64,000 nucleotides of DNA from a virus. Both the position numbers and the translations under genes were made by a program. Numbering within the stretch: the first letter of the stretch is position 1; every line of letters starts with the position of its first letter. Below the pieces are notes generated by a model, which saw only the letters and a list, made by a program, of their open reading frames with translations, was not told where the DNA came from and made no database searches. Positions 8,878 through 23,513 of this stretch are shown here, in pieces. The stretch is from the IMG/VR virus record IMGVR_UViG_3300027859_000006, positions 1 to 64,000 of that record. One strand, written 5' to 3'.

Positions 8878-9139
8878 ACTAGAAGTCGAACTATTCAAAA
8901 ACGACGAAAAAGGAATCTTATACAAGCTGTCAGTAACCGAGTTTAGAGGTAAGTCTTATCTTTCAGTTCGGGAATGGTATTTAGATTTTGAGGGAGTTTA
9001 TGCTCCAACAAAAAACGGATTTACAGTCCCGTATACTCTAGATACCACACTGGCTCTGTTTGAAGCCTTGGTAGATCTTCTGTCTAAGGCAGAAGTGTTA
9101 GAAACTTTACTAGAGAAACGAAATGAAAGAACTACTTAA
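8855..9139 (+). CDS. PC4/YdbC-like ssDNA-binding protein
   Basis: 94 residues. The core follows the PC4 (transcriptional coactivator p15) pattern: a first strand (ILYKLSVTEFRGKSYLSVRE) with the FRGKxYLxVRExY motif, a strand around WYLDFEGVYAP, then PTKNGFTVP, and a C-terminal helix that normally dimerises. Bacterial and phage members bind ssDNA in recombination and transcription. Here it sits directly upstream of, and overlaps by 17 bp, the ligase adenylation subunit, so a role at replication forks or nicks is likely. Confidence 0.7.
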   Translation: MLEGHVDKLEVELFKNDEKGILYKLSVTEFRGKSYLSVREWYLDFEGVYAPTKNGFTVPYTLDTTLALFEALVDLLSKAEVLETLLEKRNERTT

Positions 9140-10094
9140 AACTGCTTCTGAAGCCTACTACGATGGAAACCCAATCCTTACTAATGAGCAATACGACACA
9201 TTAGAACGTATGTACGGACAAACTATCTCTGGTAACGGAGACACACCTCACGCATTTAGAATGTACTCACTTCAAAAGTGCTACGACATGCAGGATGCCC
9301 CACTAAGCATCGAAAGATGTACCAAAACTCCAAAGCTAGACGGAGCTGCTATTTCATTATTATACGTCCAAGGAAATTATACATTGTCTCTTACTAGAGG
9401 TGATGGATTTAAGGGACGCGATATAACAGATAAAATCCGACAGCTTGTTCCGCATAAGATCGAAACCGACAAGGATTTAGTACAAATTACTGGAGAAGTA
9501 GTTTGTAGTCACACTATGCCTAATGCGCGGAATTACGTATCTGGAGCTTTAAACCTTAAAGACTTCGACGAGTACTCTAGCAAGGTTGTAGAAGGATCTA
9601 TTGAATTTGTTGCCTACTCTGTACAAACCTCGGAATCTTCTATTGGTATTACTACTTCATATCCGGATGACATGAAGTTCTTATACCGAAACGGATTTTT
9701 GCCTGTAACTGAACTACAGATAGAAGATGGTTTAGCCTCTGCTTATGGAACAGCAAGCTTTCTAACAGACGGAATTGTGTACAGACTATCTAGTAACGCT
9801 CAATTCAAAGCGCATGGCTTTACCTCTAAGTTTCCAAAAGGAGCTTTTGCTTTCAAGGAGAATGCTGAGGCTGTGGAGACTACTCTTTTAGACGTAGTTT
9901 GGCAGACTGGAAAAAGCGGCAAGGTTTCTCCAGTGGCGATTCTAGAACCTGTTATGGTAGGGGATGCGAAAGTATCTCGCGCTACTCTTAACAATATAGA
10001 ATTTATAAAGGCGCTAGACTTAGAAATAGGATGCAAGGTAGGCATTGTTCGCAGCGGTGAAATTATACCTTGTGTAGTTTCCCGTATTGATTAG
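9123..10094 (+). CDS. NAD-dependent DNA ligase, adenylation subunit
   Basis: 323 residues. Domain Ia is visible at the N-terminus (AYYDGNPILTNEQYD, the NAD-binding region). The active-site lysine is K71 in TPKLDGAA, with the downstream nucleotidyltransferase strands (LTRGDGFKGRDIT, ITGEVV) and the OB domain towards the end (VSPVAILEPVMVG). The zinc finger, HhH and BRCT domains are absent and are encoded by the separate gene at 10,232, so together they make a two-subunit ligase, as in T5 (LigA/LigB). It should seal nicks in phage DNA. It overlaps the PC4-like gene. Confidence in function is high. Confidence 0.9.
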   Translation: MKELLKTASEAYYDGNPILTNEQYDTLERMYGQTISGNGDTPHAFRMYSLQKCYDMQDAPLSIERCTKTPKLDGAAISLLYVQGNYTLSLTRGDGFKGRDITDKIRQLVPHKIETDKDLVQITGEVVCSHTMPNARNYVSGALNLKDFDEYSSKVVEGSIEFVAYSVQTSESSIGITTSYPDDMKFLYRNGFLPVTELQIEDGLASAYGTASFLTDGIVYRLSSNAQFKAHGFTSKFPKGAFAFKENAEAVETTLLDVVWQTGKSGKVSPVAILEPVMVGDAKVSRATLNNIEFIKALDLEIGCKVGIVRSGEIIPCVVSRID

Positions 10095-10231: not shown

Positions 10232-10996
10232 ATGGAAATTTTAGTACCAACAGAATGTCCCTCCTGCGGAAGTGAGCTAGAGACAGTAAACAGTCAATTG
10301 TTCTGTCGAAACTCTAAATCATGTCCTGCACAATCTACTAAGCGCGTACAGCACTTTTGTAAGATTTTAAAAATCAAGGGATTCGGAGAGGTCACTGTTA
10401 ATAAACTAGAGATTTCTCATATTAACGAGCTATTAACTCTTACGGAAGAGTTTTGTAAAACAAAAGGGATAGGGGATAAAACCTCAAGCAACTTAGTAGC
10501 TCAGATTCAAGACCGACTTAATAAGAAAATCTACGTATCAGATTTTATCTCAGGAATGTCAATACCTTTAGTAGGTACTTCACTAGCCAAGAAGCTAGGC
10601 TCAATTAAAATAGACGACCTGTCATATGAAGCTATACGCGAAGTAGGTGGTGGCGATAAAGCTGCAAACAACTTAATGGCTTGGATCGAAACAGACTGGA
10701 TTCCAGAATTACAAACCGAATGGGATCAGTATTTAGTAACAGAAAAAACCGTCAGTAATACTGTACAGCAAAAAGGTGTAGTGTGTATTACAGGCAAACT
10801 AAACGACTTTCCTAATCGAAATGCCGCAGCAACACATTTAGCGTCACTCGGTTGGGAAGTAAAATCATCAGTAACCAAAACAACACAATACTTAGTCTGC
10901 GAAGATGATTCAAAGACAGGTTCAAGCTCTTACAAAAAAGCAGAGAAACTTGGACTACCTATTGTGACAATCAAAGAATTAGAGGATAATTATTAA
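10232..10996 (+). CDS. NAD-dependent DNA ligase, zinc finger/HhH/BRCT subunit
   Basis: 254 residues. The zinc finger uses C9, C12, C25 and C31 (CPSC...FCRNSKSC). Helix-hairpin-helix repeats follow (KILKIKGFGEVTVNKLEI; TKGIGDKTSSNLVAQI; GTSLAKKLG). The C-terminal 80 residues form a BRCT domain (GVVCITGKLNDFPNR, LGWEVKSSVTKTTQYLV). These are exactly the domains missing from the 9123 protein. It should clamp the adenylation subunit on nicked DNA. It has its own promoter and hairpin leader rather than coupling to the first subunit, so the two can be made in different amounts. The 10,998 gene follows after 1 bp. Confidence 0.85.
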   Translation: MEILVPTECPSCGSELETVNSQLFCRNSKSCPAQSTKRVQHFCKILKIKGFGEVTVNKLEISHINELLTLTEEFCKTKGIGDKTSSNLVAQIQDRLNKKIYVSDFISGMSIPLVGTSLAKKLGSIKIDDLSYEAIREVGGGDKAANNLMAWIETDWIPELQTEWDQYLVTEKTVSNTVQQKGVVCITGKLNDFPNRNAAATHLASLGWEVKSSVTKTTQYLVCEDDSKTGSSSYKKAEKLGLPIVTIKELEDNY

Positions 10997-14073: not shown

Positions 14074-15842
14074 ATGAAAATAGCAATCATCCAAAAATGC
14101 CCATCCAAGACTGAATACCAGAAACTGTTCATGTTACAGAATCATGAGGTAGAAGTCTACAACCTATCAAGTACTAAGGTTTCTCGACTACTTAAACGAG
14201 ATATAGACCTTACGCACTTCGACCCAACTAAATTCGACTACGTAATCCTCGTAGGTTCTGAAGCTCTAAAAAACTATACAAAACAAACATCAGTAACCGA
14301 TTACACCGGAAAACAAGTTGAAGGTAAATGCGGTTATCCCAATTTCATTGCTAGTATCTCACCAGCAATGCTAGCATTTAAACCAGAAAACAAGCCCGTG
14401 TTCGACTTAACTGTAAAAGCCATTCATAATATATTTGGTGGCGTTGAAGAAGACATGGCAAATAAAAACTACGAGTTCTACAGAGAGACTGAAGATATTA
14501 AGAAGTTCCTTAGACGAGTCGAAGCCCACGGAACTGACGTAGTAGCTCTCGACTCCGAAACTAGTGCATTAGAACCTAGAGAAGGGTACATGCTAGGTAT
14601 CTCTGTAACATACGAGCTTCACCAAGGAGCTTACCTAGACTCTGATGGACTAGACCAAGAATGTGTTGATATTCTACAAAGAATTATCGATACTAAGGAC
14701 GTAGTATTCCACAATGCTAAGTTTGATATGAAGTGGTTTTTTTACCATTTAGGCGTAAGGTTTGACCACAGAGAAGGTCACGTACACGATACAATGATTC
14801 TTCACTATCTGTTAGACGAGCGACAAGGTACTCATGGACTTAAGTCTTTGGCACTTAAATACACAGATTTAGGGGCGTACGATGATGAACTTGACGAGTG
14901 GAAGAAAGATTACATAAAACAGTATTCTATTGACCCAGACACTTTTTCATACGACTTAATACCGTGGGACATAATCAAAGTATACGCTGCAAAAGATACA
15001 GACGCTACATTCCAACTGTTTCGTAAGTTCTACCCTATTCTTATGAAAAATAGTAAATTAAAATACTGTTACGAAGAGCTACAACTACCAGCACTTCACT
15101 TCTTAACTAGAATGGAAGACCGTGGAGTTCCGGTATCTGCCAACAGACTTCTAGAAGCTAACAACTACCTAGACAGTCAACTATCAGCTTACCGTAAACA
15201 GCTATGGGAAGTAGAAGAAGTAATAGAGCTAGAGCAAGAGCAAGGAGCAGTATTTAATCCTAACTCTGTTCAGCAAATTAGAAAACTACTGTTTGATAAA
15301 GTAGGCTTAAAACCGACAGGTAAATTGACAGGCACAGGTGCAATATCAGTAGACAAAGAGGTGCTAGACACTCTAGCTGCTCAGCATAAAGTACCAAAGC
15401 TTATTAAGAATATCAGAACGCATTTAAAACTTAAATCAACTTACATATCTAAGCTAATACCTTGTATTAATTCAGATAGTAGAGTACGAACAGGGTTTCA
15501 CCAAACCACGACCACTTCGGGTCGATTGTCCTCTTCAGGTCGATTTAACATGCAGCAGCTTCCGAGAGATAATCCTATTATCAAAGGTTGTGTAGTACCT
15601 CCTGAGGGTTATAAAATAGTAGCCTTGGACTTAACCACCGCAGAAATTTATTTTGCGGCTGTCTTATCGGAAGATAAGGCAATGCAGCAAGTATTTATCA
15701 ACATGAAGAAAGACCCTGATAAATACCCTGACTTTCACGCTAACGTAGCGTCTATGGTATTTAACTTACCATGTGAGCCTAAAGACGTTAAAAAGCTATA
15801 TCCAGCGCTAAGACAGGCGGCTAAAGCAATCAGCTTCGGTAT
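14074..15842 (+). CDS. Family A DNA polymerase, exon 1
   Basis: First 589 complete codons, plus two bases of a split codon, of a 784-residue polymerase interrupted by an intron. The start is the ATG after AAGGAAT. Residues 1-130 are an N-terminal extension without a clear motif. The 3'-5' exonuclease shows D160-x-E162 (LDSETS), HNAKFDMKW near 213, and YAAKDTDA near 304. The polymerase domain has QTTTTSGRLSS near 475, motif A VALDLTTAEIYF near 518 (the usual DYSQIELR is strongly changed but keeps the Asp), and the first half of motif B, RQAAKAISFGI. Without splicing the frame ends four codons past the junction. The exon join gives SFGILYGSGP, the standard O-helix sequence. Confidence 0.9.
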
Positions 15843-16105
15843 TAACTTATAAAGGTATCGGTTGCTCGTGAGAGCATCTCAGCTGAATAAATATAGAGAA
15901 TAATCCGCTCAATTGACGGAAACCCTAACCCAGCAATGGTATGGCAATCCGCAGCCAGAGTTAGTAGGAATACTTTCAAATGGTTCAGAGACTCATAGAG
16001 CTTCCAGAACGGAAGCAACTAGGATGCTTCGGCATAATACGGCGGACACCTTATTAGTTAAGGTGATGGGATAGTCCATGCCTCTAGAAATAGAGGAATA
16101 ACATG
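15843..16105 (+). ncRNA. Group I intron in DNA polymerase motif B
   Basis: 263 nt with no internal ORF. P1 is visible: exon TCGGTAT (15,836-15,842) pairs with GTATCGG (15,855-15,861), placing the required U.G pair at the 5' splice site. Core elements match group I: Q-like AATCCGCAGCC (15,946-15,956), R-like GTTCAGAGACT (15,983-15,993), and S-like GATAGTCC (16,070-16,077), the last two forming P7. Hairpins TGCTC/GAGCA (P2) and CCTCT/AGAGG (P9, 16,081-16,096) flank the core. The last base is G. The join keeps the frame and restores polymerase motif B. It should self-splice. A homing endonuclease, if any, would have to act in trans (compare the HNH gene at 48,477). Confidence 0.9.
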
Positions 16106-16691
16106 TTTATACGGGTCAGGCCCAGCTAAGGTAGCAGAAGCGGTTAATCTAGCATTCCTAGAGAATGACCAACCTGCGACTTGTACTGTAGAAGATGCGA
16201 AAGGATACATCCAAGACTACTTCCGTAGATTCAAGCAGCTTAAACGTTGGATTGATGAATGCCATAACCAAATCAAAGAGTATGGTTTTATCTATAATCA
16301 CTTTGGTAGAAAGCGTAGACTACGCAACATTAACTCTAAGGATAGAGGTATTGCTTCTGGTGAAGTTCGTTCAGGATTTAACGCAATCATCCAATCTATA
16401 TCTAGTGACTCATTGTTACTGGGTGCAATTGATGCGGATAAAGAAATCATAGAGAAAGGATTCCCTGCTGAAATCTTCGCTCTAGTACATGACTCCATCG
16501 TAGCAATTGTTAGAGAAGACAAAGTAGAAGAGTACATCGAGCTAGTAACTAGAAATGTGCAAAAAGACCGTGGATGTTCAATCCCTGACTGTCCTGTTGG
16601 TCTAGAGGCGGACTCAGAGCCAGGTGGTTCTAGAGACTATTCTTGTGGTAAATTAGAAGCTAAGTATCCAGACTTAGCTAAGGTAACATAA
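16106..16691 (+). CDS. Family A DNA polymerase, exon 2
   Basis: The last 195 codons of the polymerase. It opens with the second half of motif B (LYGSGPAKVAEAV), then KRWIDECHNQIKEYGFI and a fingers/palm segment, motif C LVHDSI near overall residue 717 with the catalytic Asp, and a C-terminal tail after GCSIPDCPVG. The total of both exons is 2,355 bp, an exact multiple of three with its stop at 16,689-16,691. The stop overlaps the next start. A gene finder unaware of the intron would call short wrong-frame ORFs here. Confidence 0.9.
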
Positions 16692-17501: not shown

Positions 17502-18856
17502 GAAAAAAGGCAGTAATATCTAACAAGATATACTTAAACTGTTCTAAGGGCTCAGACTTGGAGCATAAGCTAGAGTCTGAGCTAACTTATGAAATAAACC
17601 AACAACCTATCTCAGAGTTCCCTTTGGTTATTAGACACCTTACTAGGATATCTGATATGGTTGTTACTTTTCCCGCAGGTAGAGTAGACCTAATACCAGA
17701 TGATTACGAAATTGTAGACAAACGTAGCTACGAAGAAGCTGAAATACCAGAGCCTAGTTTTACTCTAAGAGAAAACCAAGCAGAAGCTAATGATTATTTT
17801 AGTGACGGTATGTCTGGTATTATAAACTGTAAACCTGGGTGGGGTAAGTCCATATGTGCTATGGGCTTAGTAGCTAAGTACCAATTAAAGACCTTAATAG
17901 TAACTACTACCACAGTTATACGTGATATGTGGGTTAAGGAAATAAAACAGCACTTTGGTATAGAGCCTTGTGTTATTGGAGGTGGGAAGGTTATAAATCC
18001 CGAATCTCCAATAGCCGTAGGTAATATACAAACAGTAGAGAAGATTATCCAAAAGGAAAGCGGTACGTATGGAATGCTGATAATCGACGAGTGCCACCAT
18101 TGTTCTGCCAATACATTTACCAAAGTTCTGAACGTATCTAGAGCATCTATAAAAATAGGTCTTAGTGGTACATTGACCAGACGAGACGGTAAACACGTAC
18201 TGTTTAACGACTTCTTTGGTTCTAAGAGGTTTGTTGGTAAAGATGAAAACCGTATGAAACCTACTGTGTGGGTTTATAGGTCAGCAGTACAAATCCCATC
18301 CAACTCTATGATTCCATGGGCACGCCGCGCCAATGCAGTTATGGAAGACCCACGACATTTAAGTGATGTTATTTTCATAACTAAAATATTGGAGCAACTA
18401 GGGCACAGAGTTTTAGTAGTTGCTGACAGGGTAGAGTTTTTAGAAAAAGCACACAAAGCGTTGCCTTATAGCTTAATAATAGCTAAGAACATGGCCGCTA
18501 CCGCTGAAGAGAGGGAGATAGTCATGAATGCTGTTAAACAAGGAAAAGCACTATCACTATGTGCAACACAGTCTATATTCTCTGAGGGCGTATCCCTTAA
18601 TGAACTGTCTGCTCTAGTCGCAGGCTCTTTGATTAGTTCCGAAGAACTACTAGAACAGCTTATTGGTAGGGTTCAAAGACCTGCTGAGGGTAAGTTGTCT
18701 CCTATAGTGGTGGATATAAGACTAGAGGGTGAAACAGCTAGAAGACAGTTCTATAACAGGAAAGCTCTGTATACAAGAGAGGGCTGGGAAGTTAAAGAAA
18801 TGAGCAGGGCGGCAATGCTGGACTTGGTGAAACAACATGAGCAAACAATTAGCTAA
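17498..18856 (+). CDS. SF2 DNA/RNA helicase (UvsW/T5 D10-like)
   Basis: 452 residues. RecA domain 1 carries Walker A INCKPGWGKS near 108-117, motif Ia LIVTTTTVIRD, a DECH box LIIDECHH near 188-195, and motif III LSGTLTRRDG. Domain 2 carries a strand with HRVLVVADRVE, and motif VI QLIGRVQRP. The short N-terminal 85 residues are specific. Phage enzymes of this kind (T4 UvsW, T5 D10) migrate branched DNA and unwind R-loops in recombination-dependent replication. It lies between polymerase and ssDNA-binding genes. Confidence 0.8.
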   Translation: MRKKAVISNKIYLNCSKGSDLEHKLESELTYEINQQPISEFPLVIRHLTRISDMVVTFPAGRVDLIPDDYEIVDKRSYEEAEIPEPSFTLRENQAEANDYFSDGMSGIINCKPGWGKSICAMGLVAKYQLKTLIVTTTTVIRDMWVKEIKQHFGIEPCVIGGGKVINPESPIAVGNIQTVEKIIQKESGTYGMLIIDECHHCSANTFTKVLNVSRASIKIGLSGTLTRRDGKHVLFNDFFGSKRFVGKDENRMKPTVWVYRSAVQIPSNSMIPWARRANAVMEDPRHLSDVIFITKILEQLGHRVLVVADRVEFLEKAHKALPYSLIIAKNMAATAEEREIVMNAVKQGKALSLCATQSIFSEGVSLNELSALVAGSLISSEELLEQLIGRVQRPAEGKLSPIVVDIRLEGETARRQFYNRKALYTREGWEVKEMSRAAMLDLVKQHEQTIS

Positions 18857-23063: not shown

Positions 23064-23513
23064 ATGGCGTCTAAACAATCCGCTAAGGGTGCTAGGTTCG
23101 AGTATTCTGTAAGAGATATGCTTACTGAGAAAACTGGTGTTAAGTGGGACAGAGTCCCGCTTAGCGGAGCAGGAACAATGAAAGGTGATTTATACTGCCT
23201 GACTAACCACTATTACTATTGCTTTGAATGCAAGTCTTTTAAAGACACAGTAATCCAAGAGAACCTATTATCAGCTAAATCAAATAACATATTCTCTTGG
23301 TGGGAACAAACACTTAGAGAAGCAAAAGAAATGAATAGAAAGCCTGCTCTAGTATTCAAGAAAGACAGAGGCAAACCTATTATAGCAGTCGAAGAAGACA
23401 TTGAAGGAATTAATAAATTCTCCATTACCGCTTTTGGCATGGAGGGAGTTAACCTTTACCTATTCACAGACTGGCTAGAAGTTAAAAAAGTAGAGGAAAT
23501 AATACTAGTATGA
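23064..23513 (+). CDS. PD-(D/E)XK nuclease, Hjc-like
   Basis: 149 residues. GARFEYSVRDML gives the N-terminal Glu helix, then RVPLSGAGTMKGDLY with the catalytic Asp, and YYCFECKSF with the E-x-K pair: the pattern of archaeal Hjc-type and other PD-(D/E)XK resolvases (R..GSGa..KGD...E.K). It may resolve Holliday junctions or trim branched replication intermediates. It lies between the SbcC-like and flap endonuclease genes, the place of D14 in T5. Fold assignment is firm; the exact substrate is inferred. Confidence 0.7.
   Translation: MASKQSAKGARFEYSVRDMLTEKTGVKWDRVPLSGAGTMKGDLYCLTNHYYYCFECKSFKDTVIQENLLSAKSNNIFSWWEQTLREAKEMNRKPALVFKKDRGKPIIAVEEDIEGINKFSITAFGMEGVNLYLFTDWLEVKKVEEIILV

What the first reader, a model, noticed from the sequence alone, without database searches (positions are those of the whole stretch)
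15843..16105. ORF-less group I intron inside motif B of the DNA polymerase gene
Seen: the polymerase frame stops at 15,852, exon 2 resumes at 16,106, and removing 15,843-16,105 restores SFGILYGSGP and an uninterrupted 784-residue frame. The P1 pairing (TCGGTAT with GTATCGG), the Q, R and S core elements and a final G are all present. Known: phage group I introns favour the most conserved codons of polymerase genes. At 263 nt with no homing nuclease, it is a minimal intron; mobility would need help in trans.
Basis: partly seen in the sequence, partly recalled or inferred. Interest (0 to 1): 0.75.

Follow-up and report, generated by a model that had tools for sequence, protein, structure and literature searches.

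The report
ORF-less group I intron in phage polymerase
A T5-like phage's DNA polymerase gene is interrupted, at the codons for its active-site helix, by a 263-base self-splicing RNA intron that has no homing-enzyme gene although its nearest relatives in other phages carry one; the element is real, well supported and of a known kind.

Summary
The family A DNA polymerase frame stops at 15,852; removing 15,843-16,105 restores a 784-residue protein that aligns to Klenow fragment across the join. Rfam calls a full-length group I intron: 61.2 bits, gathering score 50, E 4e-13. On six same-site homologues, 35 of 66 pairs show compensatory change (0 of 500 shuffles), including exon-guide covariation in P1 that fixes the 5' site and P9.0 covariation that supports the 3' site. 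Six closely related metagenomic contigs lack the insert and join exactly there. The interrupted codon is 764 in E. coli Pol I numbering (motif B). Homologous introns at the identical site in Proteus phage PM135, Providencia phage PR1 and metagenomic contigs are about 1.1 kb and carry a LAGLIDADG gene in the P8 loop. The window copy lacks it, and no homing nuclease was found in the 108-kb record. A second ORF-less group I intron lies in td of the same genome; its allele in a sister phage carries a GIY-YIG-like frame. Best reading: a splicing-competent, homing-incompetent allele, probably derived by ORF loss. New member of a known kind. Splicing itself is untested.

The parts
14074..15842 (+). 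exon 1 of the family A DNA polymerase (exonuclease domain, motif A, first half of motif B); ATG 14,074 gives the 784-aa product
15843..16105 (+). group I intron, 263 nt, ORF-less, subgroup IA by its P7.1/P7.2
   Evidence: Rfam RF00028 61.2 bits; empty-site alleles; covariation
15836..15861 (+). P1: exon UCGGUAU 15,836-15,842 with guide GUAUCGG 15,855-15,861, U.G at the splice site
   Evidence: the pair at 15,840/15,857 is U-A here, G-U in PM135/PR1/L005, C-G in L057
15848..15854 (+). P10 strand: UAUAAA just 5' of the guide, complementary to exon 2 UUUAUA (16,106-16,111); about 3 bp possible in homologues
   Evidence: and sequence inspection; weaker than P1
15863..15876 (+). P2 hairpin UGCUC/GAGCA
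   Evidence: all 5 pairs change on both sides in homologues, but only 80% of cells pair
15904..15909 (+). P3 5' strand (partner 16,041-16,046)
15914..15953 (+). P4-P5 (P4 15,914-15,920 with 15,948-15,953; Q element)
15955..15983 (+). P6/P6a, closed by a GGAA tetraloop
15990..15993 (+). P7 5' strand (R element; partner 16,073-16,076 in the S element)
   Evidence: invariant in the six homologues, so no covariation test
16000..16035 (+). P7.1 (16,000-16,016) and P7.2 (16,024-16,035), typical of subgroup IA
16041..16046 (+). P3 3' strand
16047..16065 (+). P8 with a 5-base loop; homologues carry the LAGLIDADG gene in this loop
16073..16076 (+). P7 3' strand (S element)
16078..16105 (+). P9.0 (AUG 16,078-16,080 with CAU 16,102-16,104), P9 (16,081-16,096, GAAA loop), terminal G 16,105
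   Evidence: P9.0 covaries at all three pairs
16106..16691 (+). exon 2 of the DNA polymerase (second half of motif B, motif C VHDS)

Best explanation
This is a functional, self-splicing group IA intron at codon 764 (E. coli Pol I numbering), phase 2, of a T5-like phage DNA polymerase. It folds on the pre-mRNA, binds a guanosine in P7, cuts after U15842, joins exon 1 to exon 2 after G16105 and so restores motif B; without splicing the phage would make a 592-residue stub lacking motif C and half of motif B. It belongs to a family of same-site introns whose other known members carry a LAGLIDADG homing endonuclease gene in P8. This copy has no such gene and most likely lost it, so it splices but cannot home by itself; it can spread only by ordinary recombination, or if a co-infecting phage supplies the endonuclease. 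Shown: sequence, core structure, covariation, site, empty alleles, ORF-bearing homologues, no homing nuclease detected in the record. Inferred: splicing in vivo, homing by the relatives' enzyme, direction of the ORF change.
For: Rfam full-length hit. Frame restoration and Klenow alignment across the join. Six empty contigs at exactly this point. Same-site homologues of 1,109-1,111 nt with a LAGLIDADG_3 protein in P8. Covariation: 96.5% of cells paired, 35 pairs with two-sided changes, 0/500 shuffles, slid controls 34-41% paired. The exon-guide pair at 15,840/15,857 tracks the synonymous change GGU/GGG/GGC in the exon. No GIY-YIG, HNH, HNH_3, LAGLIDADG_3, T5orf172 or cognate-enzyme match in the 108-kb record; the last search does ring in three ORF-bearing relatives. 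The nearest intron core is L067, an ORF-bearing copy at 77% identity, with nearly the same P8 3' strand.
Against: No transcript or splicing data. The core tree is unrooted and weak (support 55 for the split joining window and L067), so ORF loss is not proven over late ORF gain. Divergence is raised just upstream of the site, but intronless relatives also vary there, so co-conversion is not shown.
Confidence: 0.93

Rival explanations
1. The intron never had an endonuclease gene: it is the ancestral ORF-less form, and the LAGLIDADG gene entered P8 later in the relatives' lineage.
For: P8 is short and intact with no ORF debris; the tree is unrooted. Capture of endonuclease genes by ORF-less introns (collaborative homing) is described in the review PMC3984707.
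Against: All same-site homologues read here (PM135, PR1, L005, L057/L058, L067, and the 3' part of L018) carry the related gene in the same loop, and the window copy is nearest the ORF-bearing L067.
Confidence: 0.25
2. The insert is a decayed, no longer splicing group I relic, so the polymerase gene is split or dead.
For: No RNA evidence exists; the Rfam score (61 bits) is moderate and the folding z-score modest.
Against: Every core helix keeps its pairs, with compensatory changes; the guide matches this phage's own exon; exon 2 is 97-99% identical in protein to intronless alleles.
Confidence: 0.05
3. An assembly artefact or chimera in a metagenomic contig.
For: The window is a virus record from a metagenomic collection, and a 22-base P7.1-P7.2 pattern finds no second copy in IMG/VR.
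Against: A precise insertion at a site used by homologous introns in isolate genomes, with a guide fitted to the host exon and a covarying core, is not what chimeric assembly gives.
Confidence: 0.02

Closest known systems
Same-site intron in the DNA polymerase of Proteus phage PM135 and Providencia phage PR1 (Demerecviridae; annotated only as polymerase / endonuclease / polymerase)
   Same: Identical insertion point in motif B, homologous core (68-71% identity), same P1-P9.0 plan
   Different: 1,110-1,111 nt with a LAGLIDADG gene in P8; the window copy is 263 nt without it
DNA polymerase introns of SPO1, SP82, Bastille, Pf-WMP3 (subgroup IA2, site 674), phiL7 (676), PhiI and W31 (881); PMC3428280
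   Same: Group IA introns in conserved codons of family A phage polymerases
   Different: Those sites are 674, 676 and 881 in E. coli numbering, this one 764; the described endonucleases are HNH
Streptococcus thermophilus phage lysin intron and its deletion derivatives (Foley et al. 2000; seen only as a reference, paper not held)
   Same: ORF-reduced versions of a mobile phage intron
   Different: Other gene, hosts and intron; not compared here
Collaborative homing: ORF-less intron plus free-standing endonuclease (review PMC3984707)
   Same: An ORF-less intron whose mobility would need an enzyme in trans
   Different: No candidate free-standing homing enzyme was found in this phage record

Membership tests
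Group I intron | Conserved catalytic core matching the family covariance model | tested here: met
   RF00028, 61.2 bits against gathering score 50, positions 1-253/253
Group I intron | P1 with a U.G pair at the 5' splice site, terminal G at the 3' end | tested here: met
   U15842-G15855 invariant in six homologues; G16105
Group I intron | P3-P8 and P4-P6 domains supported by covariation | tested here: met
   35 of 66 pairs with changes on both sides; 0/500 shuffles. P7 and P6 are invariant and so untested by covariation
Group I intron | Precise absence in relatives, with an intact gene after removal | tested here: met
   L007-L012; 784-aa frame
Group I intron | Self-splicing with guanosine cofactor | not testable with these tools
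   needs in vitro transcription and RT-PCR
Subgroup IA (IA1/IA2) | P7.1 and P7.2 between the P7 5' strand and the P3 3' strand | tested here: met
   P7.1 16,000-16,016 with 5 of 6 pairs covarying; P7.2 16,024-16,035. IA1 against IA2 was not tested with subgroup models
Mobile (homing) group I intron | Encodes a homing endonuclease | tested here: not met
   No ORF in the intron; no GIY-YIG, HNH, HNH_3, LAGLIDADG_3 or T5orf172 match and no cognate homologue in 108 kb
Mobile (homing) group I intron | Co-conversion of flanking exon on transfer | tested here: inconclusive
   Divergence about 16% within 120 nt upstream, but intronless relatives also differ among themselves there, about 10%

The most novel reading that the evidence does not exclude
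Within one group of closely related T5-like phages, group I introns occupy at least five sites (three in the polymerase, one in the helicase Walker A motif, one in td), with presence/absence polymorphism at the polymerase and helicase sites and ORF-bearing and ORF-less forms in td. The window phage carries only ORF-less forms: a natural snapshot of introns kept or spread after losing their endonucleases, perhaps because sister phages home them in trans or because they have a regulatory role.
Probability: 0.25. Interest if true: 0.6.

Novelty: new member of a known kind. Interest (0 to 1): 0.4.

Why it matters
It adds motif B (codon 764) to the polymerase intron sites listed in PMC3428280, documents an ORF-less allele of a lineage whose other members carry a LAGLIDADG gene, and, with closely related intronless alleles, gives a clean natural set for testing how phage introns persist after losing their homing enzyme. 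No paper found here describes introns of this phage family in the polymerase (searches; open-access library only, so earlier reports may exist).

Tried and rejected
Free-standing homing endonuclease in the phage (collaborative homing): searched with five families and the relatives' enzyme, none found; a PDDEXK_15 gene at 23,064-23,513 is a separate phage gene and was not taken for a homing enzyme. Pfam scan of 20 other window ORFs: no homing domains. A second group I intron in the window: none even at E <= 1. Other carriers of this exact copy in IMG/VR: none by a 22-base pattern. Co-conversion footprint: inconclusive. The Foley et al. paper is not held.

Full report
What is there. The polymerase gene lies in a T5-like order: DnaB-like helicase, primase, polymerase, small ORFs, helicase. 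The best DNA matches are Demerecviridae such as Vibrio phage KIT04, Proteus phage PM135 and Providencia phage PR1. The polymerase frame from ATG 14,074 stops at 15,852. Joining 15,842 to 16,106 gives 784 residues, and the joined protein aligns to E. coli Klenow fragment through the join, LRQAAKAISFGILYG opposite RRSAKAINFGLIYG. Counting along that chain (taking its first residue as 324, from general knowledge) puts the interrupted Ile codon at E. coli residue 764, split after its second base. This is motif B. The first in-frame stop of an unspliced message ends ten bases into the intron, so unspliced message yields a protein without motif C and with half of motif B.

Group I membership. Rfam finds one match in the 64-kb window at its gathering score: RF00028, 61.2 bits, full length, E 4.4e-13. 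The helices P1, P2, P3-P8, P7.1, P7.2, P9.0 and P9 were placed by hand on the window sequence and checked on an alignment with five same-site homologues from which the ORFs had been cut. 96.5% of pair cells are standard pairs, 35 of 66 pairs have changes on both sides, no shuffle of 500 reaches any of the five measures, and sliding the partners by 1-3 columns drops pairing to 34-41%. The structure was drawn from the window sequence, which by itself favours it over slid versions; the two-sided changes in the other five sequences are the independent part. RNAalifold, without being given the structure, predicts most of the same helices. P7 and P6 are invariant and get no support from covariation; P7 rests on the Rfam match.

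Splice sites. P1 pairs exon UCGGUAU with the guide GUAUCGG. The third base of the Gly codon differs between phages (GGU, GGG, GGC) and its partner in the guide changes with it (A, U, G), so the guide is fitted to the host exon. P9.0 (AUG/CAU here; GCA/UGU, ACC/GGU, GUG/CAU, GUG/CAC in relatives) covaries at all three pairs and places the last G at 16,105. P10 (UAUAAA with exon 2 UUUAUA) is perfect here but only about 3 bp in some relatives. Six metagenomic contigs (L007-L012), 97-99% identical in exon 2 protein, lack the insert, and the BLAST alignments break at 15,843 and 16,106. Their flanks are 95.5-97.0% identical upstream in the long pieces (lower, 81-91%, in the last 100-210 bases of those contigs that carry another intron just upstream) and 94.0-96.6% downstream over 1,742 bases. 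L007 and L008 give identical alignment figures and may be the same phage.

Relatives with an ORF. The introns of PM135 (1,110 nt), PR1 (1,111 nt) and an unverified contig L005 (1,109 nt) sit at the identical point. Each has an ORF of about 261 codons in the P8 loop. The L005 protein matches Pfam LAGLIDADG_3 (31.6 bits, cut-off 22.5) and the PM135 and PR1 proteins are 65-66% identical to it. L057/L058 and L067 have a homologue too. The window copy has a 5-base P8 loop. GenBank annotates the PM135 and PR1 genes as polymerase, endonuclease, polymerase, with no intron feature in the stretches shown.

Mobility. The 108,151-base record holds no match to GIY-YIG, HNH, HNH_3, LAGLIDADG_3 or T5orf172, and none to the relatives' enzyme; the same protein search does ring in the PM135, L067 and L057 records. 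A missing part of the genome cannot be excluded. On this evidence the intron cannot home by itself.

Loss or late gain of the ORF. The window copy is closest to L067 (77%) and lies among ORF-bearing copies in an unrooted tree, but with support of only 55. Its P8 3' strand is nearly that of L067. Loss is the simpler reading; it is not proven.

Context. The same record has a second group I intron in td, G000:102,115-102,342, 79.7 bits, also without an ORF. In sister phage G001 the same td intron has about 0.8 kb more in an internal loop, with a GIY-YIG-like reading frame by eye. In other related contigs, introns sit after the motif A aspartate (window 15,630|15,631; L011), at 15,732|15,733 (L009, L010, L012) and in the helicase Walker A motif (17,839|17,840; all six), where the window phage is empty. 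These sites were placed from BLAST breakpoints and by reading the junctions, and may shift by a base.

Judgement. The element is a new member of a well-known kind at a site not among those listed in PMC3428280, and its main interest is as the ORF-less member of an otherwise ORF-bearing lineage.

Noticed in passing
G000:102,115-102,342 (-), locus L001 1501-1728 (outside the window): Second group I intron in the same phage, in thymidylate synthase between MWHQR and SVDVFLG, ORF-less (79.7 bits); sister phage G001 has the same intron with a GIY-YIG-like ORF in a loop.
   Followed up: partly
L067 1494-3999: A related polymerase gene with four group I introns within about 70 codons; introns 3 and 4 appear to be separated by a 12-nt exon (TTCCTTTGGTAT). 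L057 shows a similar 12-nt exon (CACATTCGGCAT).
   Followed up: partly
window 17839-17840; L007-L012: Empty site in the window's helicase gene (Walker A motif), where all six closest relatives carry an insert of about 282 nt; in the four scanned it is a group I intron (86-95 bits).
   Followed up: partly
L009 2705-3900, L012 2708-3899 (window site 15732|15733): Intron of about 1.17 kb in the polymerase with a 287-aa ORF (L009) whose C-terminal part looks like a VSR/PD-(D/E)XK nuclease by eye.
   Followed up: no
L057 355-1680 and 5328-7717: Polymerase and helicase of this relative also seem to contain inteins (ends VEDNHNFLT...VHN and VEDNHNYIANGKLVSN).
   Followed up: no
window 9123-10094 and 10232-10996: NAD-dependent DNA ligase split into two ORFs (adenylation/OB, and zinc finger/BRCT).
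   Followed up: no
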